This document shows positions 10,101-63,362 of a DNA stretch of 64,000 nucleotides, in pieces. Each line of letters starts with the position of its first letter. Position 1 is the first letter of the stretch. The DNA lies in assembly GCF_000383955.1 (NCBI RefSeq), contig NZ_KB913013.1, forward strand, positions 5,413,694 to 5,477,693, in the 5' to 3' direction. The translations under genes were made by a program, and so were the position numbers. Under the pieces are notes generated by a model. The model was not told the origin of the DNA and did not search any database. It worked only from the letters and a program-made list of their open reading frames with translations. This DNA is from Rudanella lutea DSM 19387. GTDB lineage: Bacteria > Bacteroidota > Bacteroidia > Cytophagales > Spirosomataceae.

Positions 10101-10186
10101 AACAGTTAACAGTTTTCAATGAACAACGAACCGTGTTTACAATGCTTAGTGACCAACTGTACGCTGTTCATTGCTCACTGTTCACT
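10101..10186. repeat. word palindrome, GAACAGTGAAC family (fucP end)
   Basis: The left arm from 10102 (ACAGTTAACAGTTT...) pairs with the right arm ending at 10186 at about 21 of 26 positions. The right arm is a run of TGTTCACTG/TGCTCACTG words and contains the stop codon of fucP, whose last residues NSEQ are encoded by the arm. It fills the gap between fucP and the mutarotase gene. The same words recur at 14433-14596. Confidence 0.7.
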
Positions 10187-11448
10187 GTATATCCCCGCCA
10201 GCCGAACCAGGCTACGACGCTGAAGCAAAGCAGGGGGATAATGTACGCCAGCTGAATGTTGCTTTGGTCGGAGATCCAGCCCATGAGCAACGGAAACAAG
10301 GCGCCACCCGCGATAGCCATAACGAGCAGCGACGAGCCCAATTCCCGGTCTTCGTCGAGCCGGTCGATGCCGAGGGCAAAGATGGTTGGGAACATGATCG
10401 ACTGGAAAAACGGAACGGCAAAAACGGCCCATACCGCCAACTCCGACTCCACGGTCATGGCAACACCCAGCAAGCCCATGCTGATGAGTGAATACAGAGT
10501 AAGCAAGCGGTTGGCGGGGATAAAGCTGGTCAGAAACGTACCCACAAACCGACCGATCAGGAAACCCAGCATGGCGTAGCCCAGCCAGTCGGCAGCTTGC
10601 TTTTCGGGTACGTTGCTCGTGTATTTGGCAAACCGGATAAAAAAGCTCGTTACGCAGACCTGTGCGCCCACGTAGAAAAACTGCGCCCAGATGCCCGCTA
10701 CCAGGTGTTTGTGCCGCAGGGCCGTGCGCAACGAGGCTGTGTTTCCGGCTTCGCGATTTTGTACGTCGGGCATTCGGGTAATCACAAACAGGCCCAGCAC
10801 GGCCAGCACTACAATGGCAATAATAATGTAGGGCAGCTTCACCGAGTCGGCCTCAAACTGAAGGTACTGATCCAACTGAGCGGGCGTCATGGCGGCCAGT
10901 TCGGCCTCGCTGTGCTCAATGCCGCTCAGGATGAATTTACCCCCGATAAGCGGAGCCAGAAACGCCCCCAGTCCGTTGAACGATTGACTCAGGTTGAGCC
11001 GCGTCGTGGCCGTACTGGCAGGCCCCAGAATGGTCACGTACGGGTTGGCGGCCGTTTCGAGAAAGGCACAGCCCGACGCAATGATGAACAACGCTCCCAG
11101 AAAAAGCAGGTACATACGGGTGTTGGCCGCCGGTACAAAAAGCAGTGCCCCCAGGGCGTAGAGGGCCAAACCGGCCAGAATACCCTGTTTGTAGCCGTAC
11201 TTCTTCATAATAAGCCCCGCTGGTACGGCCATCAGAAAGTAGCCGAGGTACACCGCCGAGTCGATCAGGGCCGATTGGAGGTCGGTGAGCTGGCAGGCTT
11301 TTTTGAGGTGCGGAATCAGAATAGGCTCCAGATTGTGCACAAAAGCCCACAGAAAAAACAGGCTGGTAACCAGCGCAAACGCCACTTTGTGGTTTCCGGC
11401 CTGAGCCGTTGGGCTTGAAGTACTCAGCGAAGGGGTAGGAGAAGGCAT
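10168..11448 (-). CDS. fucP: L-fucose:H+ symporter (FucP-type MFS permease)
   Basis: A 426-residue major facilitator with twelve predicted helices. FucP-family marks include FALVTSLFFLWAFVHNLEPILIPHLKKAC at the first helix, QSALIDSAVYLGYFLMAVPAGLIMKK (acidic residue of helix 2), FLETAANPYVTILG, NLSQSFNGLGAFLAPLIGG and the C-terminal FPTIFALGID. It imports L-fucose with a proton across the inner membrane. It is the transport step of the operon, between the dehydrogenase and the mutarotase. The last four codons lie inside an intergenic word palindrome. Confidence 0.92.
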   Translation of the reverse strand: MPSPTPSLSTSSPTAQAGNHKVAFALVTSLFFLWAFVHNLEPILIPHLKKACQLTDLQSALIDSAVYLGYFLMAVPAGLIMKKYGYKQGILAGLALYALGALLFVPAANTRMYLLFLGALFIIASGCAFLETAANPYVTILGPASTATTRLNLSQSFNGLGAFLAPLIGGKFILSGIEHSEAELAAMTPAQLDQYLQFEADSVKLPYIIIAIVVLAVLGLFVITRMPDVQNREAGNTASLRTALRHKHLVAGIWAQFFYVGAQVCVTSFFIRFAKYTSNVPEKQAADWLGYAMLGFLIGRFVGTFLTSFIPANRLLTLYSLISMGLLGVAMTVESELAVWAVFAVPFFQSIMFPTIFALGIDRLDEDRELGSSLLVMAIAGGALFPLLMGWISDQSNIQLAYIIPLLCFSVVAWFGWRGYTVNSEQ

Positions 11449-11490
11449 AACGGCAAAGGGGAAACAGTGAACGGCAATTATACAAACTAA

Positions 11491-12276: not shown

Positions 12277-12305
12277 GGTGTTTGAGACGTTAGATTTTGA
12301 GACGT

Positions 12306-12449
12306 TAGATGTATTGAGTGATAAGGTTATTCTCCGTTTGGCTGTCCCGTACAACCACTGCCAGGGTCTTCGACCACTGGCAGGGAGTGAGCAACCCAAA
12401 CCCTTCCAATGGTTCCTTGCGAGAACAACCTAATCACCCAATACATCTA
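12306..12449. repeat. 29-bp inverted repeat enclosing an 86-bp core
   Basis: Positions 12306-12334 and 12421-12449 are complementary at 26 of 29 positions. The core holds a second stem (CTGCCAG...CTGGCAG). Just outside the left arm GACGTTAGAT occurs twice (12291-12310), a word shared with the dispersed element at 41311 and 61617. It fills the space between the SDR start and the fuconolactonase stop, so read-through transcripts of the operon would carry a long hairpin. It has the architecture of a MITE, but no target duplication is clear. Confidence 0.7.
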
Positions 12450-12453
12450 GGGT

Positions 12454-13278
12454 CTACAGTTTATAAAAACGAACAGCATTGGCCCCAAATACCTTCTGGC
12501 GGACTTCAGCACCCCAAGGCGCTACGTAGTCTTCGACTAAGGTTTTTACCTGGGTGTAATCAGCCGCAACGAGGCAAACCGGCCAGTCGGAGCCGAACAT
12601 CAGCCGGTCGGGGCCAAATTGCTCGAATACCACGTCGAGGTAAGGGAAAAAATCCTTTTTTGACCAGCCGTGCCAATCGGCCTCGGTCACCATACCCGAC
12701 ACTTTGCAGTGTACGTTCGGGTGTTTGGCTAGTTCGCCCATCCAGTTCGACCAGCGTGTAATCTCCTGTTTCTTGATGTACGGCTTGGCCAGGTGGTCGA
12801 TCACGAAGTTTACTTCGGGCACTTCCCGTACCAGATGCAAGGCCGCTTTGAGCTGGCTGGGGTAGATCAGAATATCGTACGTAAAGTCGAAGGCTGCCAA
12901 TTGCCGAATGCCCCGGATTACCTCGGGCCGCATCAGGAAATCGTCGGGCTCAGCCTGGGCTACATGCCGGAAACCTTTCAGTTCTTCGTACTGCGAATAC
13001 ACTTCGAGTTTGTCGTACAACTGATTGCTCCGCAGATCCACCCAACCCACCACGCCTTTGACAAAGTCGTAGGCATTGGCCAGCCCCACCAGCAGGGTGG
13101 TTTCGGCGTCCGATTGGTCGGCCTGTACCGCCACACAGCCGTCGATGCCGTTGGCTTTCAGAACGGGCTCCAGGTCGGCGGGCAAGAAATCTCGCCGGAT
13201 CACCGCCATATCGTCGGTAATCCAGGTGTCGCGTTCGGGCGTGTAAAACCAGAAATGTTGATGCGCGTCAATTGTCAT
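12454..13278 (-). CDS. amidohydrolase_2-family L-fuconolactonase
   Basis: A 274-residue TIM-barrel hydrolase of the amidohydrolase superfamily. It starts with the metal ligands DAHQHFW, then GCVAVQA, GVVGWVDL, LKGFRHV, the His of FVIDHLAKP and the catalytic Asp of LMFGSDWPV. This subgroup (COG3618) opens sugar lactones, including L-fucono-1,5-lactone. Next to fucP and an FAH hydrolase the L-fuconolactonase assignment is well supported by context, though L-rhamnonolactone is an alternative substrate. The neighbouring SDR gene lies on the same strand, 177 bp downstream and separated by the long inverted repeat. Confidence 0.88.
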   Translation of the reverse strand: MTIDAHQHFWFYTPERDTWITDDMAVIRRDFLPADLEPVLKANGIDGCVAVQADQSDAETTLLVGLANAYDFVKGVVGWVDLRSNQLYDKLEVYSQYEELKGFRHVAQAEPDDFLMRPEVIRGIRQLAAFDFTYDILIYPSQLKAALHLVREVPEVNFVIDHLAKPYIKKQEITRWSNWMGELAKHPNVHCKVSGMVTEADWHGWSKKDFFPYLDVVFEQFGPDRLMFGSDWPVCLVAADYTQVKTLVEDYVAPWGAEVRQKVFGANAVRFYKL

Positions 13279-13282
13279 AGAA

Positions 13283-13367
13283 ATGGGGAGGAAAGGGAAG
13301 TAAGGAAAAAAGGGAGAAGGGGGTTAGCTTTCCTTTTTCCTTCCTCCCTTTTCCCTTTCTCCTTCTG
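13283..13367. repeat. word palindrome, purine/pyrimidine family (fuconolactonase-FAH gap)
   Basis: A pure A/G tract (13283-13322, words like GGAAAGGGAAG) is followed by a complementary C/T tract (13329-13367). The right arm ends at the base before the stop codon of the FAH gene, whose stop is 13368-13370. Read as RNA it would form a long purine-pyrimidine hairpin. The same type occurs at 26442 and 30442. Confidence 0.65.
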
Positions 13368-14230: not shown

Positions 14231-14336
14231 GTGAAAAAGTGAAATAGCGAAAGAGAGAACAGGCGGAAGCAGTGGGCGATGTTGGCGAGACGATTCCTTT
14301 CTCCCAACGCCTTTTCGCTCATTCGCTCTTTCACAC
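14231..14336. repeat. word palindrome, GAGCGAAAGAGTGAAA family (upstream of FAH)
   Basis: Left arm 14231-14256 (GTGAAAAAGTGAAATAGCGA...) is complementary at most positions to right arm 14311-14336 (CTTTTCGCTCATTCGCTCTT...). It lies in the probable 5' leader of the fucose operon. The GAGCGAAAGAGTGAAAGAG words reappear as an unpaired run at 53478-53504. Confidence 0.55.
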
Positions 14337-14426: not shown

Positions 14427-14432
14427 CACCGC

Positions 14433-14596
14433 GAACAACGAATAGGGAACAGTGAACAACTAACAACCAACAACGAACAATAGCGTAGTACCTAAGGAGT
14501 CACTATTCATTGTTCACTGTTCACTGCTGGTTGTTCACTGTTACCTGTTCACTGTTACCTGTTCGTTGTTGACTGTTCGCTGCTCGTTGTTCACTG
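14433..14596. repeat. word palindrome, GAACAGTGAACAAC family (argG leader)
   Basis: The left arm (14433-14482) iterates GAACAACGAA, GAACAGTGAACAAC and CAACAACGAACAAT; the right arm (about 14501-14596) iterates the complement, TTGTTCACTG, CTGGTTGTTCACTG, CTGTTCGTTGTTG, and is almost twice as long. The two arms can pair in several registers. It ends 6 bp before the argG ATG and so could affect argG translation. The words match those at 10101-10186. Confidence 0.7.
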
Positions 14597-14602
14597 ATTA
14601 TT

Positions 14603-15790
14603 ATGTCTCAGAAAGTTGTTCTCGCGTTTAGTGGAGGTCTCGATACCTCGTTTTGCGTTAAATATCTGACCGAAGATCGGGGGTTGGAAGTCCACTCGGT
14701 GCTGGTCGACACAGGCGGATTTTCGGATGCCGAACTGAAAGCGATTGAAGAGCGGGCCTACTCCCTCGGGGTGAAAAGCCACGCGACCGTTTCAAAAACC
14801 GACGAATACTACCAGCAATGCCTGAAGTTTCTGGTGTTTGGTAACGTGCTGAAAAACAATACGTACCCGCTCTCAGTGAGTGCCGAGCGATTTTTTCAGG
14901 CTATTGCCGCTGGCGAATATGCCCGCGAGATAGGCGCGTCGGCCATTGCCCACGGTAGTACCGGTGCGGGCAATGATCAGGTGCGGTTCGACATGGCGTT
15001 TCGGATTCTGGCACCCGATGCCGAAATCATCACGCCAATTCGTGACCTGCGCCTGTCGCGCGAGGCCGAAATCGAATACCTCAAGAGCAAAGGTGTGGAT
15101 CAGGAGTGGCACAAAGCGGCCTACTCGATCAACAAAGGCCTCTGGGGAACGTCGGTAGGGGGAAAAGAAACCCTTACCTCGGATCAGTACCTGCCTGAGT
15201 CGGCCTGGCCCACGCAGGTGACCGAGACCACCCCCAAAACCATTACCCTGCATTTTGAGCATGGCGAACTGAAAGGCATTGATGCTGAGCGGTTCGATAA
15301 CCCCGTAGGAGCTATTCAGAAGCTGACGGAGTTGGCCGGACCGTATGGCATTGGTCGTGATATTCACGTGGGTGATACCATTATCGGTATCAAAGGCCGG
15401 GTTGGTTTCGAAGCCCCCGCTCCGCTTATTATCATCAAGGCGCACCATACCCTCGAAAAGCACGTCCTGACCAAGCATCAGCTGACCTGGAAAGATCAAC
15501 TGGGTAATTTCTACGGTACTATGCTCCATGAGGGGCAGTTCCTGGACCCGGTCATGCGCAATATCGAAACATTCCTGGCCGATACGCAGGCCCACGTGAC
15601 CGGCAAAGTTCACGTTCAGCTCGACCCTTACCGGTTTACAGTGCTGGGTATCGAGTCGGCCTACGACCTGATGTCGTCTAAGTTTGGTTCGTACGGCGAA
15701 ATGAACAACGCCTGGACCGGCGAAGACGTGCGGGGCTTCTCGAAAGTGGCCTCCAACCAGGTAATGATTTACGAACGCATAAAGGGGTAG
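14603..15790 (+). CDS. argG: argininosuccinate synthase
   Basis: A 395-residue enzyme that joins citrulline and aspartate with ATP to give argininosuccinate, the penultimate step of arginine synthesis. The PP-loop AFSGGLDTS lies at residues 8-16, followed by AHGSTGAGNDQVRFD (citrulline/aspartate site), INKGLWGTSVGG and the C-terminal VQLDPYRFTVLGIESAYDL. Length is normal for the family. It is followed by a glycosyltransferase and argC on the same strand, so arginine genes are clustered here with one foreign gene between them. Confidence 0.97.
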   Translation: MSQKVVLAFSGGLDTSFCVKYLTEDRGLEVHSVLVDTGGFSDAELKAIEERAYSLGVKSHATVSKTDEYYQQCLKFLVFGNVLKNNTYPLSVSAERFFQAIAAGEYAREIGASAIAHGSTGAGNDQVRFDMAFRILAPDAEIITPIRDLRLSREAEIEYLKSKGVDQEWHKAAYSINKGLWGTSVGGKETLTSDQYLPESAWPTQVTETTPKTITLHFEHGELKGIDAERFDNPVGAIQKLTELAGPYGIGRDIHVGDTIIGIKGRVGFEAPAPLIIIKAHHTLEKHVLTKHQLTWKDQLGNFYGTMLHEGQFLDPVMRNIETFLADTQAHVTGKVHVQLDPYRFTVLGIESAYDLMSSKFGSYGEMNNAWTGEDVRGFSKVASNQVMIYERIKG

Positions 15791-15876
15791 CAGTAAGCAG
15801 TGGCAGTAGGCAGTAACTCCGAAACAGGCTGCCTACTGCCACTGCCTACTGCAACTGCCTACTGCAACTGCCTACT
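15790..15876. repeat. word palindrome, GGCAGTAGGCAGT family (argG stop)
   Basis: Left arm 15790-15813 pairs with 15829-15852 at 23 of 24 positions around a 15-nt loop, and two more copies of the right-arm word (CTGCCTACTGCAA) follow to 15876. The left arm starts on the last base of the argG stop codon. The right end lies 3 bp before the TTG start of the glycosyltransferase. It could be a terminator/processing hairpin or a translational barrier. Confidence 0.75.
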
Positions 15877-15879: not shown

Positions 15880-17142
15880 TTGAACGTATTCATCGACGCC
15901 AGCCCGTTGGGCATTGGATTTTACCACCCCGAAGCGAAAACTGGCGTGAGCCGGGTCGTGGAGGAGTTGGTGCGCGGACTGTGGCAGTCGAAAGAGATAC
16001 ACTTGTCACTGGCGGCTCCCTCGTACGTATCCGAAACACAGCGGTACGCGCATTACACCTTTGGGCGGAGCGGCCCCCGGCTGGTCAACGACTCGGCCGA
16101 CCGGCGTTGGGCGGCCCTGGAAAACAGCTTACTCCGCTCTTTGCCGCCGGGGAGCAAACCCTCAAAAGCCATTCGGGCGGGGCTGGGTCAGTTTCGGCAA
16201 ACGTTGCGCATCAAACCCGGTCCGCTACCGGTGGGTAAGTGGGCGCCCGGTACCATTTATCACTCGCCTTTTTTTCCGATCCCGCAGGAGGTCGCACAGG
16301 CGCGGCATATCCGCAAAGTGGTGACCATTCACGACCTGATCCCGATTCAACGGCCCGAGTGGTTCCGTGACGGTGAGCAAACGGTTCGGCAGGTGATTGC
16401 GTCGCTCACGCCCGATACGCACGTGGTGTGTGTGTCGGAGGCTACCCGAACGGATTTTCTGAACCATACCGGTTTTGATCCCCGGCAGGTCAGTACAATT
16501 CCGTTGGCGGCTTCGCGCGAGTTGTTTTACCCCGTTACCGACCCCGACCGTATTTTGGCGGTGCAGGAGCGGTTTGGGATTGGCGGAGGCAGCTATATTC
16601 TGAGCCTGGCTACGTTTGAGCCCCGCAAAAACATTGACCACCTGATTCGGAGTTTTGCCCGGCTGGTAGAAACCCGTAGCATTCCCGACGATTTTAACCT
16701 GGTTCTGGTAGGCACCAAAGGCTGGAAGTTCGATCAGATTATGGCCGAAATCAATCGGACCGATCACCTCCAATCGCGCATTATTCTGACGGGTTTCGTC
16801 CCTGACGAAGACCTGGCTCCGCTCTACTCGGGCGCGTTGGCGTTTGTGTACCCGTCGCTATACGAAGGCTTTGGGCTGCCTCCGCTCGAAGCCATGCAGT
16901 GCGGCCTGCCCGTGATTACGTCCGATCAGTCGTCGTTGCCTGAGGTGGTTGGCGATGCGGCCTTGCTGGTGCCCCCCACCAACTCCGACGCTCTTTGTCA
17001 GGCCTTACAAACGCTGATTAATTCGTCGGTGGTCCGGGCCGAGCTGGCGCAGAAGGCGCTGGAGCGGGCTGCCCTGTTTTCGTGGGACCGCTTTATCCGC
17101 GAGCATATCGAACTTTATCGAACGATAAGTGATAACCGATGA
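15880..17142 (+). CDS. GT4-family glycosyltransferase
   Basis: A 420-residue retaining GT-B transferase, probably acting on cell-surface glycan precursors at the cytoplasmic face. The N-terminal half has NVFIDASPLGIGFY and VVTIHDLIPI; the C-terminal half carries the family pattern EPRKNIDHLIRSF, TGFVPDEDLAPLYSGALAFVYPSLYEGFGLPPLEAMQCG (the EX7E motif) and SSLPEVVGDAA. The reading frame begins with a TTG at 15880; the family's N-terminal strand starts right there, so a non-ATG start is likely. Its last residues SDNR and stop lie in the next word palindrome. No link with arginine synthesis is apparent. Confidence 0.88.
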   Translation: MNVFIDASPLGIGFYHPEAKTGVSRVVEELVRGLWQSKEIHLSLAAPSYVSETQRYAHYTFGRSGPRLVNDSADRRWAALENSLLRSLPPGSKPSKAIRAGLGQFRQTLRIKPGPLPVGKWAPGTIYHSPFFPIPQEVAQARHIRKVVTIHDLIPIQRPEWFRDGEQTVRQVIASLTPDTHVVCVSEATRTDFLNHTGFDPRQVSTIPLAASRELFYPVTDPDRILAVQERFGIGGGSYILSLATFEPRKNIDHLIRSFARLVETRSIPDDFNLVLVGTKGWKFDQIMAEINRTDHLQSRIILTGFVPDEDLAPLYSGALAFVYPSLYEGFGLPPLEAMQCGLPVITSDQSSLPEVVGDAALLVPPTNSDALCQALQTLINSSVVRAELAQKALERAALFSWDRFIREHIELYRTISDNR

Positions 17143-17190
17143 GTGATTTACATCAGCAAACTCATCGTTCATCACTCCTTACTCCTTATT
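17122..17190. repeat. word palindrome, GATGAGTGAT family (glycosyltransferase stop)
   Basis: ATAAGTGATAACCGATGAGT (from about 17125) pairs at about 15 of 20 positions with CTCATCGTTCATCACTCCTT (17161-17180). The left arm contains the last codons and the TGA stop of the glycosyltransferase. The same words form the palindrome at 58987-59052. Confidence 0.6.
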
Positions 17191-18189: not shown

Positions 18190-18275
18190 TAACGTGAGTT
18201 ACGAATAATGCCTGCTGTAAGGTGCTGTTGAACAAGAAGTTGTTTGCGGAAAGACGTTGTTCGTAATTCACGTTA
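18190..18275. repeat. inverted repeat between convergent argC and thioredoxin-fold gene
   Basis: TAACGTGAGTTACGAAT (18190-18206) pairs at 15 of 17 positions with 18259-18275. The right arm ends on the stop codon (18273-18275) of the minus-strand gene. It sits between convergent genes, so a shared terminator is possible. Confidence 0.6.
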
Positions 18276-24889: not shown

Positions 24890-25020
24890 TTTCCGAGGGG
24901 TAGTTATCCGAGGGGCTACCCGGCGGGGGAGGGCTACCCGGAGGAGGGCTGGCGTCTCGCTGGGGACTGACGTCCCTGTCCGAGGACTGACGTCCCTGCC
25001 TGAGGACTGACGTCCCTGGT
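24890..25020. repeat. left array of ~20-nt repeats beside the IS200-like element
   Basis: The array is clearest as three 20-nt units with GGACTGACGTCCCTG (from about 24964, 24984 and 25004), preceded by more divergent units with GAGGGCTACCCGG and CCGAGGGGCTACCC. GGAC-TGAC-GTCC within a unit can form a 4-bp stem. The last unit is part of the 47-nt inverted repeat of the insertion. The divergent units correspond to the reverse complement of the right array. Confidence 0.65.
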
Positions 25021-25612
25021 TAATCATGAGTCAACCCCGTTGGGGTTGGGGAGGGGTGTTGATTTTGGGGAGTAGGGTTTGTAGTTTGCGGGTGTGAGCT
25101 ACCAACAGGTTGTATGAGCTACCGACAGATATTGTATCATATCGTTTTTGGGACGAAGCATCGTAAGCCGACGATTCCGGATGAACATTGTACGGAGCTG
25201 TACCGGTATATCTGGGGTGTTGTGAAGAACCAAAACTGCCGGTTGTACAGGGTAAACGGGGTGGAGGATCATATTCATATCCTCAGCGATCTGCATCCAA
25301 GCGTGTCGCTCGCCGATTTTGTGAAAACCATCAAGGTGGGTAGCTCACTCTGGATGAAAGCCAACGAGAACTTCCCGGCCTTCGAGGGTTGGGCCGTGGG
25401 ATATGGAGCCTTTACATACTCCATAAAAGAGCGCGACCGGATTATCAATTACATCAAGAAACAAAAGGAGCATCACCGCAAAATAACCTACGAAACCGAG
25501 TATAAGTCACTTCTCGACGAGCATGGTGTCGCTTACGACGAGCGCCATCTTTTCACCTAATCCATCAACCCCAACGGGGTTGACTCATGATTAACCGGGG
25601 ACGCCAGTCCTC
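25002..25612 (+). mobile_element. IS200-like insertion with 47-nt inverted ends
   Basis: A 611-bp element. Its ends, 25002-25048 and 25566-25612, are inverted copies matching at 45 of 47 positions and each ends inward with a perfect hairpin CAACCCC-3 nt-GGGGTTG (25032-25048 and 25566-25582). Inside is one tnpA gene and no tnpB. Classical IS200/IS605 elements have subterminal hairpins rather than long inverted repeats; inverted palindromes on both sides of a Y1 transposase resemble REP-associated (RAYT) loci. The element sits between arrays of about 20-nt repeats in opposite orientation. Confidence 0.75.
25114..25560 (+). CDS. tnpA: IS200/IS605-type Y1 (HUH) transposase
   Basis: A 148-residue single-strand transposase. 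It shows the N-terminal strand ILYHIVFGTKHRKP, the metal-binding HUH motif HIH at residues 53-55 (VEDHIHILSDL), and the catalytic Tyr113 with Gln117 in INYIKKQKEHH. Length and motifs fit an intact TnpA; the C-terminal tail (EYKSLLDEHGVAYDERHLF) is common to a Bacteroidota clade of these proteins. The stop is 5 bp before the right hairpin. The frame is open, so the protein may be active. Confidence 0.92.
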   Translation: MSYRQILYHIVFGTKHRKPTIPDEHCTELYRYIWGVVKNQNCRLYRVNGVEDHIHILSDLHPSVSLADFVKTIKVGSSLWMKANENFPAFEGWAVGYGAFTYSIKERDRIINYIKKQKEHHRKITYETEYKSLLDEHGVAYDERHLFT

Positions 25613-25824
25613 GGATGGTGGGCGTAGTCCTCGGATGGTGGGCATAGGCCTCGGATGGTGGGCGTAGCCCTCAGATGGTAGGCGCCAGTCCTCGGATGGT
25701 GGGCGTAGTCCTCGGATAGTGGGCGTAGCCCTCAGATGGTAGGCGCTAGTCCTCGGATGGTGGGCGTAGTCCTCGGATAGTGTACGCCAGTCCTCGGATA
25801 GTAGGGGCATAGTCATCAGATAGA
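25601..25824. repeat. right array of eleven 20-21-nt repeats
   Basis: About eleven head-to-tail units of the type GTCCTCGGATGGTGGGCGTA run without spacers from the end of the insertion to 1 bp before the ATG of the MOSC gene. Three variants rotate (AGTCCTCGGATGGTG, AGTCCTCGGATAGTG, GCCCTCAGATGGTAG), which suggests unit-level duplication. The array is the inverted counterpart of the left array and occupies the whole leader of the MOSC gene. Unit length is not a multiple of three throughout, so it is not a coding repeat. Confidence 0.75.
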
Positions 25825-25825: not shown

Positions 25826-26443
25826 ATGTACATCCAAACTGTCAATGTAGGTCTGGCACAGACCCATACGTGGAAAGGCCGCTCCGTACGCACGGCCATT
25901 TTTAAGCATCCTGTCGAAGGGCCCGTTCGGCTGGAGCTGACCTCTATTGAGGGCGATGAGCAAGCCAATAAGCGAGTGCATGGCGGCCCTAACAAAGCCG
26001 TTTATGCCTACGATATGGCTTTTTATCGGTTCTGGGAAGAGACCGGCAAAGCGCTCGAACCGGGCCATTTTGGCGAAAACCTGACTACGGTGGGCTTACC
26101 CGACCATGAGGCCGGTCTGGGCGATACGTTTCGGGTCGGGACGGCCGTGCTGATGGTGGTGCAGCCCCGTTTCCCGTGCAACAATCTCAACGTACGCTTC
26201 AACGACTCGACCATGGTGAAGCAATTTCAGCAGGCCCGGCGGCACGGTATCTATTTTCGGGTGGTTGAGCCCGGCGAAGTGAAAGCAGGGGACATTATTG
26301 AGCGGCTCGAAACGGCTCCGTATGGCGTGACCATTCAGCACGTGGTCGATGAATTCTATTCGAAGACACCCGACCCCCATTTTCTAAGCAAACTCGCCCA
26401 GTTTCCTTACCTGACCAACTACCTCCGGGAGCATTTTTATTAG
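25826..26443 (+). CDS. MOSC-domain protein (YiiM-like)
   Basis: A 205-residue MOSC (molybdenum cofactor sulfurase C-terminal) protein. Family marks are VHGGPNKAVYAYD, EPGHFGENLTT, the conserved Cys of QPRFPCNNLNVRF, and a C-terminal helical extension typical of YiiM. YiiM-type proteins bind the molybdenum cofactor and reduce N-hydroxylated compounds with electrons from a reductase. The start lies right at the end of the 20-nt repeat array, so its leader has probably been remodelled. No molybdenum gene is nearby. Confidence 0.9.
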   Translation: MYIQTVNVGLAQTHTWKGRSVRTAIFKHPVEGPVRLELTSIEGDEQANKRVHGGPNKAVYAYDMAFYRFWEETGKALEPGHFGENLTTVGLPDHEAGLGDTFRVGTAVLMVVQPRFPCNNLNVRFNDSTMVKQFQQARRHGIYFRVVEPGEVKAGDIIERLETAPYGVTIQHVVDEFYSKTPDPHFLSKLAQFPYLTNYLREHFY

Positions 26444-26567
26444 GAGAAGGGCGACAGGGAGGAAGGAGAAGGGAGAAAGGGGAGTTTCTCCTCTTTCCGC
26501 TCCTTTCCCTTTTTTTCCTGCCGCCCTCACTTCCCTTTCCTCCTTCCTCCCTTTCCTCCTTTTTCTA
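26442..26567. repeat. word palindrome, purine/pyrimidine family (MOSC-Ldh gap)
   Basis: A purine tract beginning on the MOSC stop (26442-26484, words AGGAGAAGG, GGGAGGAAGG) is followed by a long C/T tract (26485-26567). The genes converge here. The arms can pair in several registers. Confidence 0.6.
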
Positions 26568-29787: not shown

Positions 29788-30441
29788 CTACAAAGCCGCC
29801 ATCAATCCTTCGGGGGTTAGCCCGGTGAAATCCCGGATCACATAGTCCGACACAGTCCGTAACTCGTCGGTCGTATGCGTGGTGGCCACCCCCACGACCC
29901 GCGCCCCCGATGCCCGTGCGGCCCGGATACCCGTCATTGAATCTTCAAAGATCAGGCTGTCGGCGGGCGAAACACCGAGCATTTCCATCGCTTTACTGTA
30001 AATCTCAGGGTCGGGTTTAGGGCGCTGCACCAGCTTTTCGTGCAGAAGGACATCGAAATAGTCGCGCAGCCCGAGTTTTTCGAGTACAAAATCGAGATTC
30101 TCAACCGGGGCCGAGGTGCCTACGGCGGTTTTAATACCCGCCTTTTTGAGGGCTTTCAAAAAATCGGGTAAACCCGGTACCGGTACAATATGCGGGGCAT
30201 ACAATTCCCGAAACAAAGCCTCTTTCTCATCGCCGAGCCGGTAGGCTTCTTCATCGGTCAGCGTTTGTCCATCAAACAAATGGGCTACAATAGCTTTGTT
30301 GTGATTGCCCGAAACATACTTTACAAAGTCGGCATCGCTCAGGGGTTTGCCGTTGCGCCGGTAGTATTCACGCCAGGCAATAGTGTGGTAGGGGTTGGTA
30401 TCGGCAATAACGCCGTCCATGTCGAAGATGGCTGCAAGCAT
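29788..30441 (-). CDS. HAD-family sugar phosphatase / beta-phosphoglucomutase-like
   Basis: A 217-residue HAD hydrolase with a C1 helical cap. Motif I is FDMDGVIADT with the nucleophile Asp8, motif II GTSAP, motif III Lys in VQRPKPDPEIY, and motif IV LIFEDSMTGIRAA. This set is shared by beta-phosphoglucomutase and sugar-phosphate phosphatases. It lies downstream of an MFS transporter gene on the same strand, so transport and phosphate handling of one sugar is possible. Confidence 0.88.
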   Translation of the reverse strand: MLAAIFDMDGVIADTNPYHTIAWREYYRRNGKPLSDADFVKYVSGNHNKAIVAHLFDGQTLTDEEAYRLGDEKEALFRELYAPHIVPVPGLPDFLKALKKAGIKTAVGTSAPVENLDFVLEKLGLRDYFDVLLHEKLVQRPKPDPEIYSKAMEMLGVSPADSLIFEDSMTGIRAARASGARVVGVATTHTTDELRTVSDYVIRDFTGLTPEGLMAAL

Positions 30442-30527
30442 AGGAATGGGAAAAAAGGGAAAAGGGAGGAAAAGGAAGAAAGGGAGAGTATCTTTCTCCT
30501 TTCCTGCTTTGTCCTTTCCTTCTTCAT
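30442..30527. repeat. word palindrome, purine/pyrimidine family (MFS-HAD gap)
   Basis: A purine tract (30442-30487, GGGAAAAGGGAGGAAAAGG-type words) is followed by a pyrimidine tract (30492-30527). It starts one base from the HAD start codon and ends next to the MFS stop, filling the gap completely. Confidence 0.6.
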
Positions 30528-30529
30528 TT

Positions 30530-31732
30530 TTACAATTTCACAATTTTTGAGAGGGCTGCCGACACGAGCATCATGAAGCCTACGAAAGCAATGCCCCAGG
30601 GTAAACCAAAGGCTTCGGCAACGAAACCGATGACAGGAGGCCCCGCCAGAAACCCGATAAAACTGAAGGTTGCAAACGTAGCCAGACCAGCCGCGGGCGG
30701 AATTCCCGGCACCCGTAAAGCGGCTGCGTACAGAATCGGTGCGCCCAGCGAACAGCCCGCGCCGAGCAGGGCAAATCCAAGCAGAGCTACACCCGGTACC
30801 GGTACCAGAACGGCCAAAAACAAGCCCGCGGCCGCAATAAGTCCACCCAGAAACAGAAACCGCTGTGCGCCCAGCCGGGGAATGAGGGCATCGCCCATAA
30901 ACCGGCCCAGGGTCATGGTCAGCGAGAACGCACCAAACCCAAGAGCCGCTATCTGACTGCTGGCTCCGAGGGTCTCGCGGAGGTACACCGCACTCCAGTC
31001 AAAGGCGGTACCCTCGCCCATAGCCAGGGCCAAACCGATCAGAATCATCAGCAGCAGGTTGAGGTTGGGCATGACAAACGAGGCCTGTTCGGTAGTGGGT
31101 TGCACCGGAATCCGGGCCAGTACAGGGCGTACCCCTACCGTGATCAGAAGTACCAGCAAGCCCATCAACGGCAGGTGAATTTCGGGTGCAACGTGCAAGG
31201 CAATCACAGCCCCGGCCACGGCCGACCCAATCATGCCGCCCACGCTCCACATACCATGGCACGACGACATGATGGCCAAGCCCGTTGATTTTTCCACGTC
31301 GGTCGCCAGCGTGTTCATGGCTACGTTGATGAGCGCCCCCGCCAGCCCGACCATGTAAAGCCCTAAGACCAGTACCCACACGTTGGGCGCATTGACCGGA
31401 ATGCACATGACCAGTGCCAGGCCAACAGCCGCCCAGAAACAAGCCCGTGCCTGGCCCAATTTAGCAATCAGGTACCCCGTGAGCGGGTTCATGGTGAGAA
31501 GCCCGGCGGGCATGGCGAACAAAACCAGACCCAGTTCGCCTTCAGATAGTTGCAGACGCTGTTTGATGTGCGGAATGTGCGCCACCCAACTGCCAAACAG
31601 CAGGCTGTCGGAGGCAAAAACCAACCCGACCGCCCGGGCCTGTGCATGGCTAAAATAAGCCAGCACATTCCGAACGAGCGGGTTGCCTGTCATGGATATG
31701 GACGCTACAGTCGATTGATCCGTTGTATTCAT
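30530..31732 (-). CDS. MFS transporter (YbjJ-like sugar/drug permease)
   Basis: A 400-residue protein with twelve predicted helices. The MFS hairpin between helices 2 and 3 is visible as PLTGYLIAKLGQARA, and the second-half counterpart as RFMGDALIPRLGAQR. The sequence GSWVAHIPHIKQRLQLSEGELGLVLF at the first helix is typical of the YbjJ group, whose substrates are unclear. It is divergent from an AraC regulator 183 bp away, which is a plausible controller. Confidence 0.85.
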   Translation of the reverse strand: MNTTDQSTVASISMTGNPLVRNVLAYFSHAQARAVGLVFASDSLLFGSWVAHIPHIKQRLQLSEGELGLVLFAMPAGLLTMNPLTGYLIAKLGQARACFWAAVGLALVMCIPVNAPNVWVLVLGLYMVGLAGALINVAMNTLATDVEKSTGLAIMSSCHGMWSVGGMIGSAVAGAVIALHVAPEIHLPLMGLLVLLITVGVRPVLARIPVQPTTEQASFVMPNLNLLLMILIGLALAMGEGTAFDWSAVYLRETLGASSQIAALGFGAFSLTMTLGRFMGDALIPRLGAQRFLFLGGLIAAAGLFLAVLVPVPGVALLGFALLGAGCSLGAPILYAAALRVPGIPPAAGLATFATFSFIGFLAGPPVIGFVAEAFGLPWGIAFVGFMMLVSAALSKIVKL

Positions 31733-41270: not shown

Positions 41271-41310
41271 TGGGCGTTAGGTAGTCTACGGTATGACGTT
41301 TTTTGCCTCT

Positions 41311-41411
41311 GGTTCTCAGTGCTGAACATTAGATGTTGGACGTTAGATTTCACTACAGAATGGTAGTAGGTCTAACGTCTAGTGTCTGAAGCCCGAATAT
41401 CCAGTACTGAA
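41311..41411 (-). repeat. dispersed ~105-bp palindromic element, copy 1
   Basis: Read on the minus strand it matches 61617-61724 at 89 of 101 aligned positions, with one 7-nt gap. It is internally palindromic: CAGTGCTGAACATT at one end and AGTACTGGATATT at the other, with GACGTTAGA-type words in both arms. It lies in the probable mlaE leader. There is no ORF inside. Confidence 0.85.
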
Positions 41412-58571: not shown

Positions 58572-58991
58572 ATGCCACGACTCGTTGCCATTGATTTTGG
58601 AGCCAAACGCACGGGAATTGCCGTGACCGACCCCCTGCAACTCATTGCATCGGCGCTGGAAACCATTCCGTCGCATACGGTGGTGGCTTACCTGAAAAAG
58701 TACGCGCAGACCGAGCCGATTGAGGCCTTTGTGGTGGGTATGCCGAAGCGGCTCGATGGAACCGATACCGACAATACACCCCGGGTAAAGTCGTTTGTGC
58801 GGGCCTTGCAGAACGCTTTTCCCGAAACCCCCGTTCATCTACACGACGAGCGATTTACGAGCAAAATGGCCTTGCAAGCCATGATTGCGAGCGGGTCGAC
58901 AAAGAAAGACCGACGCGAAAAATCGGGTAACATCGATAAAGTAAGCGCGGCAATCATTTTGCAATCATTTATGGAACAACATCAGCGATGA
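58572..58991 (+). CDS. ruvX: Holliday-junction-resolvase-like protein YqgF/RuvX
   Basis: A 139-residue RNase H-fold nuclease, needed for pre-16S rRNA 5'-end processing and proposed to resolve junctions. It has AIDFGAKRTGIAVTDP (catalytic Asp), VGMPKRLDGTDTDNTPR (Glu/Asp region), HLHDERFTSKMA and DRREKSGNIDKVSAAIIL. The start at 58572 is fixed by the family's first strand. Its TGA lies within the following palindrome. Confidence 0.93.
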   Translation: MPRLVAIDFGAKRTGIAVTDPLQLIASALETIPSHTVVAYLKKYAQTEPIEAFVVGMPKRLDGTDTDNTPRVKSFVRALQNAFPETPVHLHDERFTSKMALQAMIASGSTKKDRREKSGNIDKVSAAIILQSFMEQHQR

Positions 58992-59052
58992 GCTATAAGT
59001 GATGAGTGATGAACTATTGTTGTCGCTCATCGCTCATCACTTATAGCTCATC
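58987..59052. repeat. word palindrome, GATGAGTGAT family (ruvX stop / def leader)
   Basis: Left arm 58987-59014 pairs with 59025-59052 at 26 of 28 positions around a 10-nt loop. Words are GATGAGCTATAAGTGATGAG and GTGATGAAC. The left arm contains the ruvX stop; the right arm ends 10 bp before the def ATG. Shares words with 17122-17190. Confidence 0.8.
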
Positions 59053-59062
59053 ACTCTCAATT

Positions 59063-59635: not shown

Positions 59636-60405
59636 ACGTAACCCTCCTCCAAACCTCCCTGCACTGGCACGACCCGGTGGCGAATCGGGCCGCGCTGGAG
59701 GAGACTATTTTTGCACTGCCTCAGCCCACCGACCTCATTGTGCTGCCCGAGATGTTTACAACGGGATTCACGATGGAGGCCCCTGCTGTGGCCGAGGCTC
59801 CGCGTCTGACTACCCACCGCTGGATGCAGCAAATGGCCGCGCAAACCAATGCCGCCGTCACGGGCAGCTATGTAGTGCGCGACAACGGGCAGTACGTGAA
59901 TCGGTTGCTTTGGATGGAGCCCGACGGGCAGTTTGCTACCTACGACAAGCGGCACTTGTTCAGGATGGCGGGAGAAGACAAACTGTACAAGGCGGGGGAG
60001 TCGCGCCTGATTCGGACGTGGCGCGGCTGGCGTATCTGCCCGCTTATTTGCTACGACCTGCGGTTTCCGGTCTGGAGCCGCAACACGCCACAAGCGTATG
60101 ACCTGCTGTTGTACGTAGCCAATTGGCCCGCGGTACGGCAACAACCCTGGGACACCCTCCTGCAAGCCCGCGCCATCGAAAACTTGAGTTATGTGGTGGG
60201 TGTCAACCGGGTTGGCGACGATGTCAACGGGCACCATTATGCCGGTGGCTCGGCCATCATCAGCCCAAAAGGCGAGGTGCTGTTCAGACAGTACGAAGCC
60301 CCTGCCGCGCATCAGCAAACCCTCTCGCTCGACGAGCTAAACGAGTTTCGGGCCAAATTCCCCGCCCACCTCGACGCAGATGAGTTTGTAATAAATAATA
60401 GATAA
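59632..60405 (+). CDS. nitrilase-family omega-amidase (YafV-like)
   Basis: A 257-residue C-N hydrolase. The Glu-Lys-Cys triad is visible in LPEMFTTGF, TYDKRHLFRM and PLICYDLRFPVWSRN. This subgroup hydrolyses alpha-ketoglutaramate and similar omega-amides made by transaminases, a repair function. It is coupled to def through an ATGA overlap. The last residues INNR and the stop are encoded by the left arm of the next palindrome. Confidence 0.9.
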   Translation: MNVTLLQTSLHWHDPVANRAALEETIFALPQPTDLIVLPEMFTTGFTMEAPAVAEAPRLTTHRWMQQMAAQTNAAVTGSYVVRDNGQYVNRLLWMEPDGQFATYDKRHLFRMAGEDKLYKAGESRLIRTWRGWRICPLICYDLRFPVWSRNTPQAYDLLLYVANWPAVRQQPWDTLLQARAIENLSYVVGVNRVGDDVNGHHYAGGSAIISPKGEVLFRQYEAPAAHQQTLSLDELNEFRAKFPAHLDADEFVINNR

Positions 60406-60499
60406 TGTACAGTGAGTAATGGATAATGAGGTATGGGCTTGTGCTCAACCAAACCACATTATCCCTTACGCATTATCCATTATTTACTACCCATTATTC
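60391..60499. repeat. word palindrome, TAATGGATAATG family (omega-amidase/gatC)
   Basis: Left arm 60391-60431 (ATAAATAATAGATAATG, GTGAGTAATGGATAATGAG) pairs with right arm about 60456-60499 (CATTATCCCTTACGCATTAT, CCATTATTTACT); the best block is 16 of 18. The left arm encodes the end of the plus-strand omega-amidase and the right arm covers the stop of the minus-strand gatC. Related words occur at 63261-63362. Confidence 0.7.
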
Positions 60500-61616: not shown

Positions 61617-61724
61617 TTCAGTGCTGGACATTCGGACTTCAGACACCAGACGTTAGACCTGTTACCATTCTGTAGAGAGGTCTAACGTCCAGTGTCCAAC
61701 ATCTAATGTCCAGTACTGAGAGCC
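61617..61724 (+). repeat. dispersed ~105-bp palindromic element, copy 2
   Basis: A 108-bp element matching the reverse complement of 41311-41411 at 89 of 101 aligned positions plus a 7-nt insertion (AGTGTCC, a repeat of the adjacent word). It starts TTCAGTGCTGGACATT and ends CCAGTACTGAGAGCC, so its tips are inverted repeats, and GACGTTAGACC/GGTCTAACGTCC form an inner 12-bp-class stem. It lies between the purH stop and the plsC start. Confidence 0.85.
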
Positions 61725-61758
61725 AATTTTATAAATTACCGAAGCGAAATGTATAAAA

Positions 61759-63261
61759 TTAATGCTTAAAATGCCGCACACCCGTGGTCACCATGGCCAA
61801 CCCGTTGGCGTTGCAGTAGTCGACCGAGTCTTTGTCGCGGATGGAGCCGCCCGGCTGCACCACGGCCGTGACACCTGCCTGATGCGCAATTTCGACGCAG
61901 TCGGGGAAGGGGAAGAACGCATCCGATGCCATCACTGACCCGTTCAGGTCGAAGCCAAACGCGTGGGCTTTCTCAATGGCTTGCTTCAGCGCATCGACCC
62001 GCGACGTTTGACCTACGCCACTGGCCAGCAGTTGACCTTCTTTTGCCAGCACAATCGTGTTCGACTTGGTGTGCTTACAGACCTTCAGGGCAAACTCCAG
62101 TGCCTTTACTTCGCTGTCGGTGGGGGCTTTTTCGGTAACGACCGTGAAGTCGGCTCCGGTTTCGGTGCGGTTGTCCTTATCCTGTTCCAGAACGCCGTTC
62201 AGGATCGTTTTGACCAGCTTAGTGGGCAGTTCAACGGGTTTCCGGCGCAGCAAAATCCGGTTCTTCTTCGATTGCAGCAACGTGAGGGCTTCGGGAGCAA
62301 ACTCGGGCGCAATCAGAATTTCCATAAAGAGCTTGTTCAACTCCTCGGCCGTTTCGAGGTCGACCGGGCGGTTGGTGACCACCACACCCCCGAAAGCCGA
62401 AACCGGGTCGCAGGCCAGCGCGTTGAGGTAAGCTTCTTTGGCAGTGGGAGCCGTAGCCACCCCGCAGGCGTTGGTATGCTTGATGATGGCAAACGCAGCT
62501 GACTCGTCGGTGAACTCGTCAATGAGTTGAATGCACGCGTCCACATCGACCAGATTGTTAAACGAAAGTTCTTTTCCGTGCAGCTTATCGAACATGGCAT
62601 CCAGATCGCCGTAGAACGTAGCTGACTGATGCGGGTTTTCGCCGTAGCGGAGGGGCGTGGCCGACCCACCCGCTGTCTGCCCCAGGAAGTACTGGTTAAT
62701 AGCCGTATCGTAGTGTGACGTAGTAGCAAAAGCCTCCTGCGCGTACCGACGGCGGTCGTCCAGATCGGTGGCTCCGTTCTTCGCGGTCAGAATACTCAGT
62801 ACATCGGCGTACTGGTTGCGCGACGAAACGATGAGCGTGTCGGCAAAGTTTTTGGCCCCCGCCCGGATGAGCGAAATCCCGCCAATGTCGATTTTCTCGA
62901 TAATATCTTCCGCCGATGCGCCGGAGGCTACCGTCTCCTCAAAAGGGTACAGATCGACCACCACCATGTCGATAGCCGGAATCTGATGCCGCTCGGCCTG
63001 AGCTACGTCTTCGGACAGGTCGCGCCGGTACAAAATACCCCCAAATACCGCTGGGTGCAGGGTTTTGACCCGGCCACCGAAAATAGACGGGTAGCCGGTC
63101 AGGTCTTCAACCGGGATAACGGGAATGCCCAGTTGTTCGATGAAGGTCTGCGTACCACCCGTTGAATAGAGCGTAACACCCTGCTCGTGCAATAGGCGGA
63201 CAATGGGTTCGAGACCATCCTTGTAGTAAACTGACAGCAGAGCGGAAGCTATTTTTTTCAT
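61759..63261 (-). CDS. purH: bifunctional AICAR transformylase / IMP cyclohydrolase
   Basis: A 500-residue enzyme catalysing the last two steps of IMP synthesis. The N-terminal MGS-like IMPCHase domain shows LLSVYYKDGLEPIVRLL, STGGTQTF and GRVKTLHPAVFGGIL; the AICARFT domain shows LRYGENPHQSA, DVDACIQLIDEF, IIKHTNACGVA, VSAFGGVV and the C-terminal SDAFFPFPDCVEIA and QPGGSIRDKDSV. The start at 63261 (MKKIASALL) matches the family. The leader holds a word palindrome whose left arm reaches the start codon. Confidence 0.97.
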   Translation of the reverse strand: MKKIASALLSVYYKDGLEPIVRLLHEQGVTLYSTGGTQTFIEQLGIPVIPVEDLTGYPSIFGGRVKTLHPAVFGGILYRRDLSEDVAQAERHQIPAIDMVVVDLYPFEETVASGASAEDIIEKIDIGGISLIRAGAKNFADTLIVSSRNQYADVLSILTAKNGATDLDDRRRYAQEAFATTSHYDTAINQYFLGQTAGGSATPLRYGENPHQSATFYGDLDAMFDKLHGKELSFNNLVDVDACIQLIDEFTDESAAFAIIKHTNACGVATAPTAKEAYLNALACDPVSAFGGVVVTNRPVDLETAEELNKLFMEILIAPEFAPEALTLLQSKKNRILLRRKPVELPTKLVKTILNGVLEQDKDNRTETGADFTVVTEKAPTDSEVKALEFALKVCKHTKSNTIVLAKEGQLLASGVGQTSRVDALKQAIEKAHAFGFDLNGSVMASDAFFPFPDCVEIAHQAGVTAVVQPGGSIRDKDSVDYCNANGLAMVTTGVRHFKH

Positions 63262-63362
63262 ATAATGGAGAATGAGTAATGGACGATGTATAACGGCCGG
63301 CAAAGCATAACCCATGGCGGGAGTATCCGCTATGCGTTATTCTTTACACATTTTCCAGTATA
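63261..63362. repeat. word palindrome, TAATGGATAATG family (purH leader)
   Basis: Left arm 63261-63296 (TATAATGGAGAATGAGTAAT...) pairs with 63327-63362 at about 26 of 36 positions. It starts at the purH start codon and lies between that codon and the promoter, so the purH mRNA would begin with this hairpin. Shares words with 60391-60499. Confidence 0.6.

What the first reader, a model, noticed from the sequence alone, without database searches (positions are those of the whole stretch)
10101..63362. A family of intergenic 'word palindromes': arms made of iterated short words, different at each place but recurring
At least fifteen spacers (10101, 12306, 13283, 14231, 14433, 15790, 17122, 18190, 26442, 30442, 41311, 58987, 60391, 61617, 63261) hold imperfect inverted repeats of 60-165 bp. 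The arms are runs of 7-14-nt words, such as GAACAGTGAAC, GGCAGTAGGCAGT, GATGAGTGAT, TAATGGATAATG or purine-only words. Complementarity is far above chance in the best cases: 23/24 at 15790, 26/28 at 58987, 26/29 at 12306. The words differ between loci, yet six of them occur at two or more distant loci. I know no described repeat class with this design. Possible roles are mRNA 3'-end protection, bidirectional termination or insulation between genes; a templated, error-prone copying process could create the arms.
Basis: partly seen in the sequence, partly recalled or inferred. Interest (0 to 1): 0.75.

Follow-up and report, generated by a model that had tools for sequence, protein, structure and literature searches.

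The report
Swappable heptamer-word hairpins at gene ends
This bacterium and its sister species fill many gaps between genes with DNA hairpins built from repeated seven-letter words, and the same gap can hold a hairpin of a different word in a different species, which hints at an unrecognised, fast-changing way of writing DNA between genes.

Summary
Thirteen of the 15 quoted spacers beat all 200 dinucleotide shuffles (17122: 3/200 reach it; 41311: 32/200, not significant). In 864 kb of this genome, probably a Rudanella, 208 spacer inverted repeats score at least 13 against 31 in four sets of shuffles; in 60 of the 208 the dominant arm period is 7 or 14, in none of the 31. The words are mainly heptamers. 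Recurrent words keep one polarity, on the 5' arm (1392 to 22). In co-directional gaps the hairpins mostly start at the stop codon and often fill the gap, even inside an ATP synthase operon. In sister species at about 90% identity the same gap may hold a hairpin of another word, or none. U-tracts are few and there is no G-U excess on the transcribed strand, unlike other palindromes here, which disfavours ordinary terminators and RNA-selected stems. Loop inversions (14 of 131 pairs, 5 expected) suggest template switching. I read them as a DNA-level, replaceable class of extragenic palindrome: a new variant of known kinds. How words arise and spread is unsolved.

The parts
10099..10192 (.). GAACAGT/GAACAAC-word palindrome (arms 10099-10134 and 10156-10192); in G001 the same gap holds a purine-word palindrome
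   Evidence: (0/200 shuffles)
12300..12455 (.). Long palindrome (arms 12300-12334, 12421-12455); not heptamer-periodic, contains GACGTTAGAT sequence; perhaps a composite dispersed element
   Evidence: f7 0.32
13279..13360 (.). Purine-word palindrome between an FAA-hydrolase and an amidohydrolase gene
   Evidence: (f7 0.49)
14239..14334 (.). GAAAGAGC/GAATGAGC octamer-word palindrome (period 8)
   Evidence: f8 0.68
14434..14570 (.). GAACAAC/GAACAGT-word palindrome directly upstream of the argininosuccinate synthase gene, in a divergent gap
   Evidence: RNA fold -54.3 kcal/mol, z -7.2
15787..15876 (.). GGCAGTA-word palindrome (arms 15787-15813, 15829-15855, word run to 15876) between argininosuccinate synthase and a glycosyltransferase gene; fills the gap from stop codon to next start; GATGAGT words in G001, GGCAGTA in G002, GAACAGT/GAGCAGT in G003
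   Evidence: (z -10.0)
17128..17176 (.). Short GATGAGT-word palindrome before a semialdehyde-dehydrogenase-family (argC-like) gene; the G001 copy is longer and keeps the word
   Evidence: 3/200 shuffles
18190..18275 (.). Palindrome TAACGTGA..TCACGTTA; not heptamer-periodic; by eye resembles another dispersed element (AACGTGAATTA)
26441..26567 (.). Purine-word palindrome in a convergent gap
30417..30555 (.). Purine-word palindrome (weaker, gapped); the G001 orthologue is a longer purine palindrome
41309..41404 (.). By eye a member of the GACATTAG/GTTAGAC family; inverted repeat not significant on its own
   Evidence: 32/200 shuffles
58984..59055 (.). GATGAGT-word palindrome between a RuvX-family and a peptide-deformylase gene
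   Evidence: -45 kcal/mol, z -11.1
60389..60496 (.). TAATGGA-word palindrome in a convergent gap
   Evidence: z -6.1
61618..61719 (.). GACATTAG/GTTAGAC family palindrome (dispersed, with shared loop)
63261..63362 (.). TAATGGA-word palindrome
   Evidence: 0/200 shuffles, best shuffle 15.5 against 16.0

Best explanation
These are a high-copy, replaceable class of extragenic palindrome. Each is a hairpin whose 5' arm is a run of a 7-nt word (8-nt in one family) and whose 3' arm is its reverse complement. Words come from a small lexicon whose make-up differs between Rudanella species. The hairpins arise and change at the DNA level: slippage alters the number and spelling of words within an arm, and replication template switching copies an arm to the other side, restores complementarity and inverts loops. 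They accumulate where DNA is neither coding nor promoter, chiefly between the stop codon of one gene and the start codon of the next, and are from time to time lost and replaced by hairpins of other words. Most are probably tolerated rather than selected; a few may be co-opted as 3'-end hairpins. SHOWN: abundance, period, polarity, position, between-species replacement, empty sites, an excess of inverted loops. INFERRED: template switching and slippage as the makers, near-neutrality, and how words spread between loci (unknown).
For: Abundance and period: 60 of 208 (own) and 54 of 206 (G001) spacer inverted repeats have dominant period 7 or 14, against 0 of 31 and 1 of 18 in shuffles; E. coli K-12, 150 kb, 73 spacers: 0 of 8 inverted repeats pass the word rule. 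Polarity of 7-mers found at 4 or more loci: 1392:22 and 1179:27 locus counts (overlapping 7-mers, so not independent). Position in 51 co-directional cases: median 1 nt after the stop codon (82% within 20 nt; uniform placement 66%), 17 nt before the next start. Replacement: 12 of 63 position-matched orthologous pairs have arm similarity <0.4; on reading them I accept six as whole-word swaps at one site (561, 556, 118, 159, 202, 260), plus 68 at 0.46; the other six are different elements in longer gaps or unclear. Four-species reads: the ATP synthase alpha/beta-to-gamma gap has GTTTATGG words in G000 and G001 but GAACAGT-type words in G002 and G003; gap 260 has three words in four species; gaps 68 and 503 are empty in G002. 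Inverted loops at 14 of 131 matched pairs, 5 of them word hairpins, against 5.0 expected when own loops are shuffled. DNA level: mismatches on the transcribed strand are 131 G-U to 141 A-C for word hairpins, 180 to 133 for the others. Word use is species-specific: matches to a GATGAG hairpin 28/31/1/6 and to a GGCAGTA hairpin 29/55/107/0 in G000-G003 (several matches per hairpin).
Against: Across 63 orthologous pairs, arms within one hairpin are no more alike than orthologous arms between species (within above between in 33 of 63, Wilcoxon p 0.36), so arm homogenisation is not a constant force; some hairpins are 96-100% identical between species although their arms pair imperfectly (own 167518, 295886, 374817), which looks like constraint. 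Strict word polarity and recurrence at unlinked loci are not predicted by local slippage plus template switching; something must copy words between loci. Neighbouring hairpins do not share words more than chance (7 against 7.0 expected). Nine of the 14 inverted loops belong to non-word palindromes, so inversion is not special to this class, and two of the five word cases are weak. Word palindromes are kept between the two species almost as often (83 of 125) as compact ones (96 of 126) and more often than the other palindromes (51 of 95), so turnover is not special either. Nearness to the stop codon is shared by other palindromes, and nearness to the next start (59%) is not above uniform placement (66%). 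The G-U test treats orthologous hairpins of two genomes as separate.
Confidence: 0.48

Rival explanations
1. Functional RNA hairpins: mRNA 3'-end protectors, intercistronic processing or insulation elements, kept by selection for pairing while sequence drifts; any word will do.
For: Gene-end position and scarcity in divergent gaps; stable RNA folds, z -3.2 to -11.1 in 6 of 6 tested stretches, the last one only part of a hairpin; all four species keep some word hairpin in the ATP synthase gap although the word changed; gap 503 has a canonical terminator in G000 where G001, and by eye G003, have a purine-word hairpin; in co-directional gaps word hairpins and canonical terminators hardly co-occur (1 of 51 against 33 of 266; 0 of 37 against 28 of 261).
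Against: No G-U over A-C excess (131:141) while other palindromes show it; gaps 68 and 503 are empty in G002; fixed heptamer words and fixed polarity are not needed for an RNA stem; the avoidance of divergent gaps also fits removal from promoters.
Confidence: 0.28
2. Mobile palindromes: MITE- or REP-like elements moved as whole hairpins by a transposase; word swaps are independent insertions and losses.
For: The GTTAGAC and TAATGTA families share loops between loci, as dispersed elements do; presence/absence between species; species-specific abundance of single words; four Y1 (IS200-like) transposase matches in the genome, one in the window.
Against: Most other word families (GAACAAC, TTTACAG, GGCAGTA, GATGAGT) have mostly unrelated loops and variable numbers of words (by eye); no constant end motif or target duplication seen by eye; the Y1 gene in the window has different flanking repeats whose units match exactly only beside it in 864 kb of own sequence and nowhere in 800 kb of G001.
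Confidence: 0.15
3. Ordinary intrinsic transcription terminators that look odd.
For: Enriched in convergent gaps and 3' of genes. T-runs at either side (33 of 286 sides) are somewhat above the 7% background.
Against: Compact palindromes have T-runs at 71 of 316 sides; word hairpins sit inside an ATP synthase operon; a separate set of compact palindromes with T-runs exists in the same genome; no association with canonical terminators in convergent gaps.
Confidence: 0.05

Closest known systems
REP / REPIN / BIME extragenic palindromes (GTAG- and CGTC-tagged; PMC3733652 abstract and passages, PMC3116915 search listing only)
   Same: Short palindromes, many copies, between co-directional and convergent genes, downstream of coding regions
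   Different: REPs are described there as 20-40 bp with family sequences and an end tag; here arms are runs of variable heptamers, loops mostly unrelated, and the word at one site can change between species
Intergenic TAACTGA heptamer direct repeats of Beggiatoaceae, some Cyanobacteria and five Bacteroidetes (PMC4679880; abstract, introduction and two results sections read)
   Same: Heptamer period, intergenic, near gene ends, patchy across phyla; other heptamers noted in Microcystis
   Different: Direct repeats of one word (169 sets and one indirect repeat in the type genome); here inverted arms, about ten words per genome, fixed polarity, replacement at the same site
GGGNATC-type G-rich heptamers of Xanthomonas and Nostoc (PMC4692102, abstract only)
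   Same: Heptamers between aligned genes, near stop codons, under-represented between divergent genes
   Different: Direct G-quadruplex-forming repeats, not hairpins
Template-switch mutation at hairpins (PMC8794818; abstract, one results section and passages)
   Same: Creates and repairs stems, inverts loops
   Different: A mechanism, not an element family; does not explain the word lexicon or its polarity

Membership tests
REP/REPIN | short palindrome repeated with a conserved sequence | tested here: not met
   Words differ between loci and can differ at orthologous sites; most loops unrelated by eye. Two sub-families (GTTAGAC, TAATGTA) do share loops.
REP/REPIN | GTAG or CGTC tag at one end | tested here: inconclusive
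   Not scanned systematically; GCTGACGC/GCGTCAGC-like sequence lies near the apex, not the end, of some word hairpins (14 palindrome rows of all types hold it or GCTGGCGC).
REP/REPIN | associated RAYT transposase moves the element | not testable with these tools
   Four PF01797 matches in the genome; the one in the window has its own, different flanking repeats.
REP/REPIN | located downstream of genes, depleted between divergent genes | tested here: met
   51 in 317 co-directional, 19 in 83 convergent, 8 in 103 divergent gaps.
Intrinsic terminator | GC-rich stem followed by a U-tract | tested here: not met
   T-run after the 3' arm in 15 of 143 word hairpins against 40 of 158 compact palindromes and about 7% of random places. 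G+C of stems was not tested.
Intrinsic terminator | ends transcription at that place | not testable with these tools
   No RNA data.
Heptamer simple repeats (STRR/LSSR, TAACTGA) | tandem 7-nt period in intergenic DNA | tested here: met
Heptamer simple repeats (STRR/LSSR, TAACTGA) | direct repeats of one word, no inverted partner | tested here: not met
   Arms are inverted; recurrent words almost always on the 5' arm.
Template-switch products | loop inversion between orthologous hairpins | tested here: met
   14 of 131 matched pairs against 5.0 expected with shuffled loops; some weak.
Template-switch products | arms homogenised within each genome | tested here: inconclusive
   33 of 63 pairs, p 0.36.
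MITE | constant terminal repeats and target-site duplication | tested here: inconclusive
   Only looked at by eye at gain/loss sites; none seen.

The most novel reading that the evidence does not exclude
A dedicated, enzyme-driven process writes these hairpins. A short heptamer template is copied repeatedly onto both 3' ends of a break or nick in a gene gap (as a telomerase-like enzyme would), and the ends are joined. This would give at once the 7-nt period, the same word on both arms, the fixed polarity (word, then loop, then its complement; more word palindromes have G over C than C over G in the 5' arm, 62:14 and 56:7; 51:10 in 80 loci of relatives), unrelated loops, one word per event, and clean replacement of one word by another at the same gap. 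Lexicons would change as templates change, which fits species- and genus-specific words.
Probability: 0.1. Interest if true: 0.95.

Novelty: new variant of a known kind. Interest (0 to 1): 0.67.

Why it matters
If the reading holds, many gene gaps in these bacteria are filled by hairpins of which a part is rewritten within the time of about 10% sequence divergence, keeping the architecture but not the sequence. That makes three questions testable: how new stems arise, whether RNA hairpins at gene ends need selection at all, and whether a finite, polar heptamer lexicon points to an unknown copying machine. It also warns that a stem kept without its sequence, the usual sign of a functional RNA, can come from DNA-level copying. 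Hairpins of the same style with other words appear in other genera: 61 of 240 inverted repeats in 817 spacers, in 39 of 80 loci of relatives, pass the rule, some of them spurious by eye.

Tried and rejected
Ordinary terminators: rejected as the main account. Constant concerted evolution of arms: not supported. Word spread from neighbours: no clustering, 7 observed against 7.0 expected in G000, 6 against 6.0 in G001. Loop retained while arms swap: I suspected it by eye at gaps 202 and 260, but rank tests gave no support (ranks 0.18 and 0.41; none of 10 usable swapped pairs below 0.08; gap 68, in the intermediate class, ranks 0.02, but its loops contain words). Loops copied from elsewhere: 16 of 54 loops have an exact match of 14 nt or more (shuffles 13%), but the longest matches are mostly words or family members. 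Rfam: no match at the gathering score in the window. Same words in plasmids: the 14430-14605 hairpin had no match in the plasmid collection at E 1e-5 (low-complexity filter on). Cyanobacterial comparison: two plasmid accessions recalled from memory were not held, so sharing of words with Cyanobacteria is untested. Density elsewhere: 20 arbitrarily placed 20-kb stretches of 15 other genera gave 5 period-7 and 2 period-8 candidates in 211 spacers, some spurious by eye, below Rudanella (78 in 503 spacers) and below the loci around argininosuccinate synthase in relatives (61 in 817). The first multi-repeat script was wrong, because masked bases paired with each other, and was replaced; its gene calls were kept. 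Thresholds for 'word' (period fraction 0.5, or 0.55 for 8; arm of 17 or more) were set after seeing the data and then checked on E. coli; the shuffle check used the dominant-period rule. Genes were called by my own simple codon-usage finder, not by a standard annotator. One paper search had a bad term and did not run.
Full report
WHERE. The window is G000:C1:5413694-5477693 of a 6.55-Mb genome in 4 contigs. Same-genus genomes G001-G003 were found; the G003 contig equals in length a contig of a named MAG 'Rudanella sp. CAN_BIN22', so the window is probably Rudanella (inferred; the family name Spirosomataceae is recalled). I read 864 kb of G000 including the window, and 800 kb of the collinear contig 26 of G001; the 30 longest alignments of the first 464 and 400 kb are 83-94% identical.

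OBSERVATION. Of the 15 quoted spacers, 13 beat all 200 dinucleotide shuffles; 17122 is marginal (3/200) and 41311 fails (32/200). Spacers with a strong ungapped inverted repeat: 63 of 286 own, 60 of 227 in G001; shuffled spacers 0 of 1430 and 0 of 1135; coding stretches 0 of 858 and 1 of 681. With gaps and up to four repeats per spacer, in 503 and 468 spacers: 208 and 206, against 31 and 18 in four shuffles of every spacer; of these, period 7 or 14 is dominant in 60 and 54 against 0 and 1. Using the wider rule (period 7, 14 or 8), 78 word palindromes lie in the 864 kb and 65 in the 800 kb, which extrapolates to roughly 600 in the genome (inference).

ANATOMY. Arms repeat every 7 nt: self-identity is 0.44 at lags 7, 14 and 28 and 0.42 at lag 21, against 0.23-0.32 at other lags and 0.27-0.31 in shuffled arms (all strong palindromes together). 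Assigned families in G000 are GAAAGAG (octamer) 11, TTTACAG 10, GTTAGAC 9, TAATGTA 9, GAACAAC 8, TTTATGG 5, purine 5, GATGAGT 4, GGAGTGA 3, GGCAGTA 2, with 12 unassigned, of 78. 7-mers found at four or more loci lie on the 5' arm 1392 times and as reverse complement 22 times; in G001 1179 and 27 (overlapping 7-mers, so not independent counts). Test words of 10-12 nt are about 13 to 180 times commoner than expected and rarely in genes. GTTAGAC and TAATGTA palindromes share loops between loci, as dispersed elements do; the other families have mostly unrelated loops by eye.

POSITION. There are 51 word palindromes in 317 co-directional gaps, 19 in 83 convergent and 8 in 103 divergent. In co-directional gaps they begin a median 1 nt after the stop codon (82% within 20 nt; uniform placement 66%) and end a median 17 nt before the next start (59% within 20 nt; uniform 66%); 51% meet both limits. 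Compact palindromes begin at a median 25 nt (44% within 20 nt; uniform 22%) and end 132 nt before the start. So closeness to the stop is a real but general preference, and closeness to the start reflects short gaps. In several of the 45 printed genes the word run reaches through the stop codon (by eye). Pfam places one hairpin between an ATP synthase alpha/beta-family gene (atpA by inference) and the gamma-type gene (PF00231), one between argininosuccinate synthase and a glycosyltransferase, and one between a RuvX-type and a peptide-deformylase gene.

TURNOVER. Of 593 gaps, 471 have an orthologue in G001; 83 hold a word palindrome in at least one genome, 42 in both, 23 in G000 only, 18 in G001 only by the threshold. 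Of 63 position-matched pairs, arm similarity is at least 0.7 in 30, 0.4-0.7 in 21 and below 0.4 in 12. Reading those 12 I accept six as replacement of one word or palindrome by another at the same site (561 = window 15790, 556 = window 10101, 118, 159, 202, 260) and set six aside as different elements in longer gaps or unclear (60, 83, 117, 184, 287, 438); gap 68 (0.46) is a further swap. In 159 the G001 hairpin is a GTAGAGACGC palindrome, in 118 the G000 one has ACACAGAG words. Four-species reads of five gaps chosen by me (scores), order G000, G001, G002, G003: ATP synthase gap GTTTATGG / GTTTATGG / GAACAGT / GAACAGCC; gap 260 GAACAAC / GGCAGTA / GGCAGTA / a TTGGATA-type word; gap 202 octamer GAAAGAG / GATGAGC / octamer GAAAGAG / a tRNA-Leu gene; gap 503 canonical terminator / purine word / nothing / purine word; gap 68 GAACAAC / GGCAGTA / nothing / GAACAGCC. 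The argininosuccinate synthase gap reads GGCAGTA / GATGAGT / GGCAGTA / GAACAGT. The G003 hairpin at 503 was read by eye (no scored repeat), and the G002 match for that gap is weak (66% identity). Matches to single words are species-specific (several matches per hairpin; for G002 only 40 of 61 candidates were scored).

RNA OR DNA? The hairpins would fold well as RNA (6 of 6 tested stretches, z -3.2 to -11.1). But selection for RNA pairing should favour G-U over A-C mismatches on the transcribed strand. In co-directional gaps, other palindromes show this (180 to 133, p 0.009) and word palindromes do not (131 to 141, p 0.59); the two classes differ at p 0.025 (both genomes pooled, so orthologues count twice). 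T-runs follow the 3' arm of 15 of 143 word palindromes and precede the 5' arm as A-runs in 18; compact palindromes 40 and 31 of 158; random places about 7%. In co-directional gaps canonical terminators accompany 1 of 51 and 0 of 37 word palindromes, against 33 of 266 and 28 of 261 other gaps; in convergent gaps there is no association. This fits sites inside operons, or replacement of terminators; gap 503 shows one such exchange.

MECHANISM. Among 131 position-matched palindrome pairs the loop fits better inverted in 14 and better direct in 60; with own loops shuffled 5.0 inverted are expected. Five of the 14 are word hairpins (381 and 404 convincing, 122 and 139 weak), nine are others. Inversion is a sign of template switching (PMC8794818, abstract, section 8 and passages read; the arm homogenisation and spacer inversion of PMC8604942 were seen in the search listing only). 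Against a constant homogenising force, arms within a hairpin are not closer to each other than to their orthologues (33 of 63, p 0.36). Kept fractions between the species are 83 of 125 for word, 96 of 126 for compact and 51 of 95 for other palindromes, so replacement is common to spacer palindromes here. What local template switching does not explain is why few words, in one polarity, recur at unlinked loci.

SPREAD. In the best 80 of 592 named loci of relatives (817 spacers, 240 inverted repeats; two of the loci are Rudanella or its sister) 61 pass the word rule in 39 loci, with 5' arms G over C in 51 and C over G in 10 (other palindromes 92 and 68); arms of all inverted repeats in the 78 further loci peak at lags 7, 14 and 21 (0.361, 0.352, 0.342 against about 0.295). 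Some of the 61 are spurious by eye (AT-rich runs), and 20 other stretches gave only 7 candidates in 211 spacers. The 15-mer AGTGAACAGTGAACA occurs in all four Rudanella genomes and in 1 of the 55 others searched; its reversed control occurs in none. E. coli: 0 of 8 inverted repeats in 73 spacers.

LITERATURE. Intergenic heptamer direct repeats and REP palindromes are known (PMC4679880, PMC4692102, PMC3733652; parts read as named under Closest known systems). I found no account of heptamer-word hairpins; the library holds only open-licence papers. The cyanobacterial STRR are known to me from recall and Mrazek's LSSR work from the introduction of PMC4679880.

Noticed in passing
window 25114-25560 (+): IS200-like Y1 transposase gene (PF01797) with, by eye, long inverted flanks (TGGTTAATCATGAGTCAACCCC...) and two different 20-nt tandem arrays at 24964-25018 and 25606-25799; the array units match exactly only there in 864 kb of own sequence and not in 800 kb of G001.
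   Followed up: partly
G000:C1 gaps near 5303654 and 5317853 (own 289960 and 304159): A separate dispersed palindrome, GCTGACGC..CTTCGACAGGCTCAG..CTGAGCCTGTCGAAG; at own 122256 its loop is inverted in G001. GCTGACGC also lies near the tip of word hairpins of several families, and GGCTGACGC ends two Spirosoma arms.
   Followed up: partly
G001 orthologue of own2 gap 225882: GTAGAGACGC..GCGTCTCTAC palindrome in place of a TTTACAG word hairpin; I recall similar palindromes from cyanobacteria (recall, not tested).
   Followed up: no
own gaps 167518, 295886, 374817: Three word hairpins 96-100% identical between species although their arms pair imperfectly: possible functional exceptions.
   Followed up: no
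window 35478-38003: Large tandem repeats of about 282-285 nt inside a 2078-aa reading frame: a repeat-rich, perhaps surface protein.
   Followed up: no
L246, L254 (G002): In G002 the GGCAGTA word forms long direct arrays (ten or more copies by eye) as well as hairpins.
   Followed up: no
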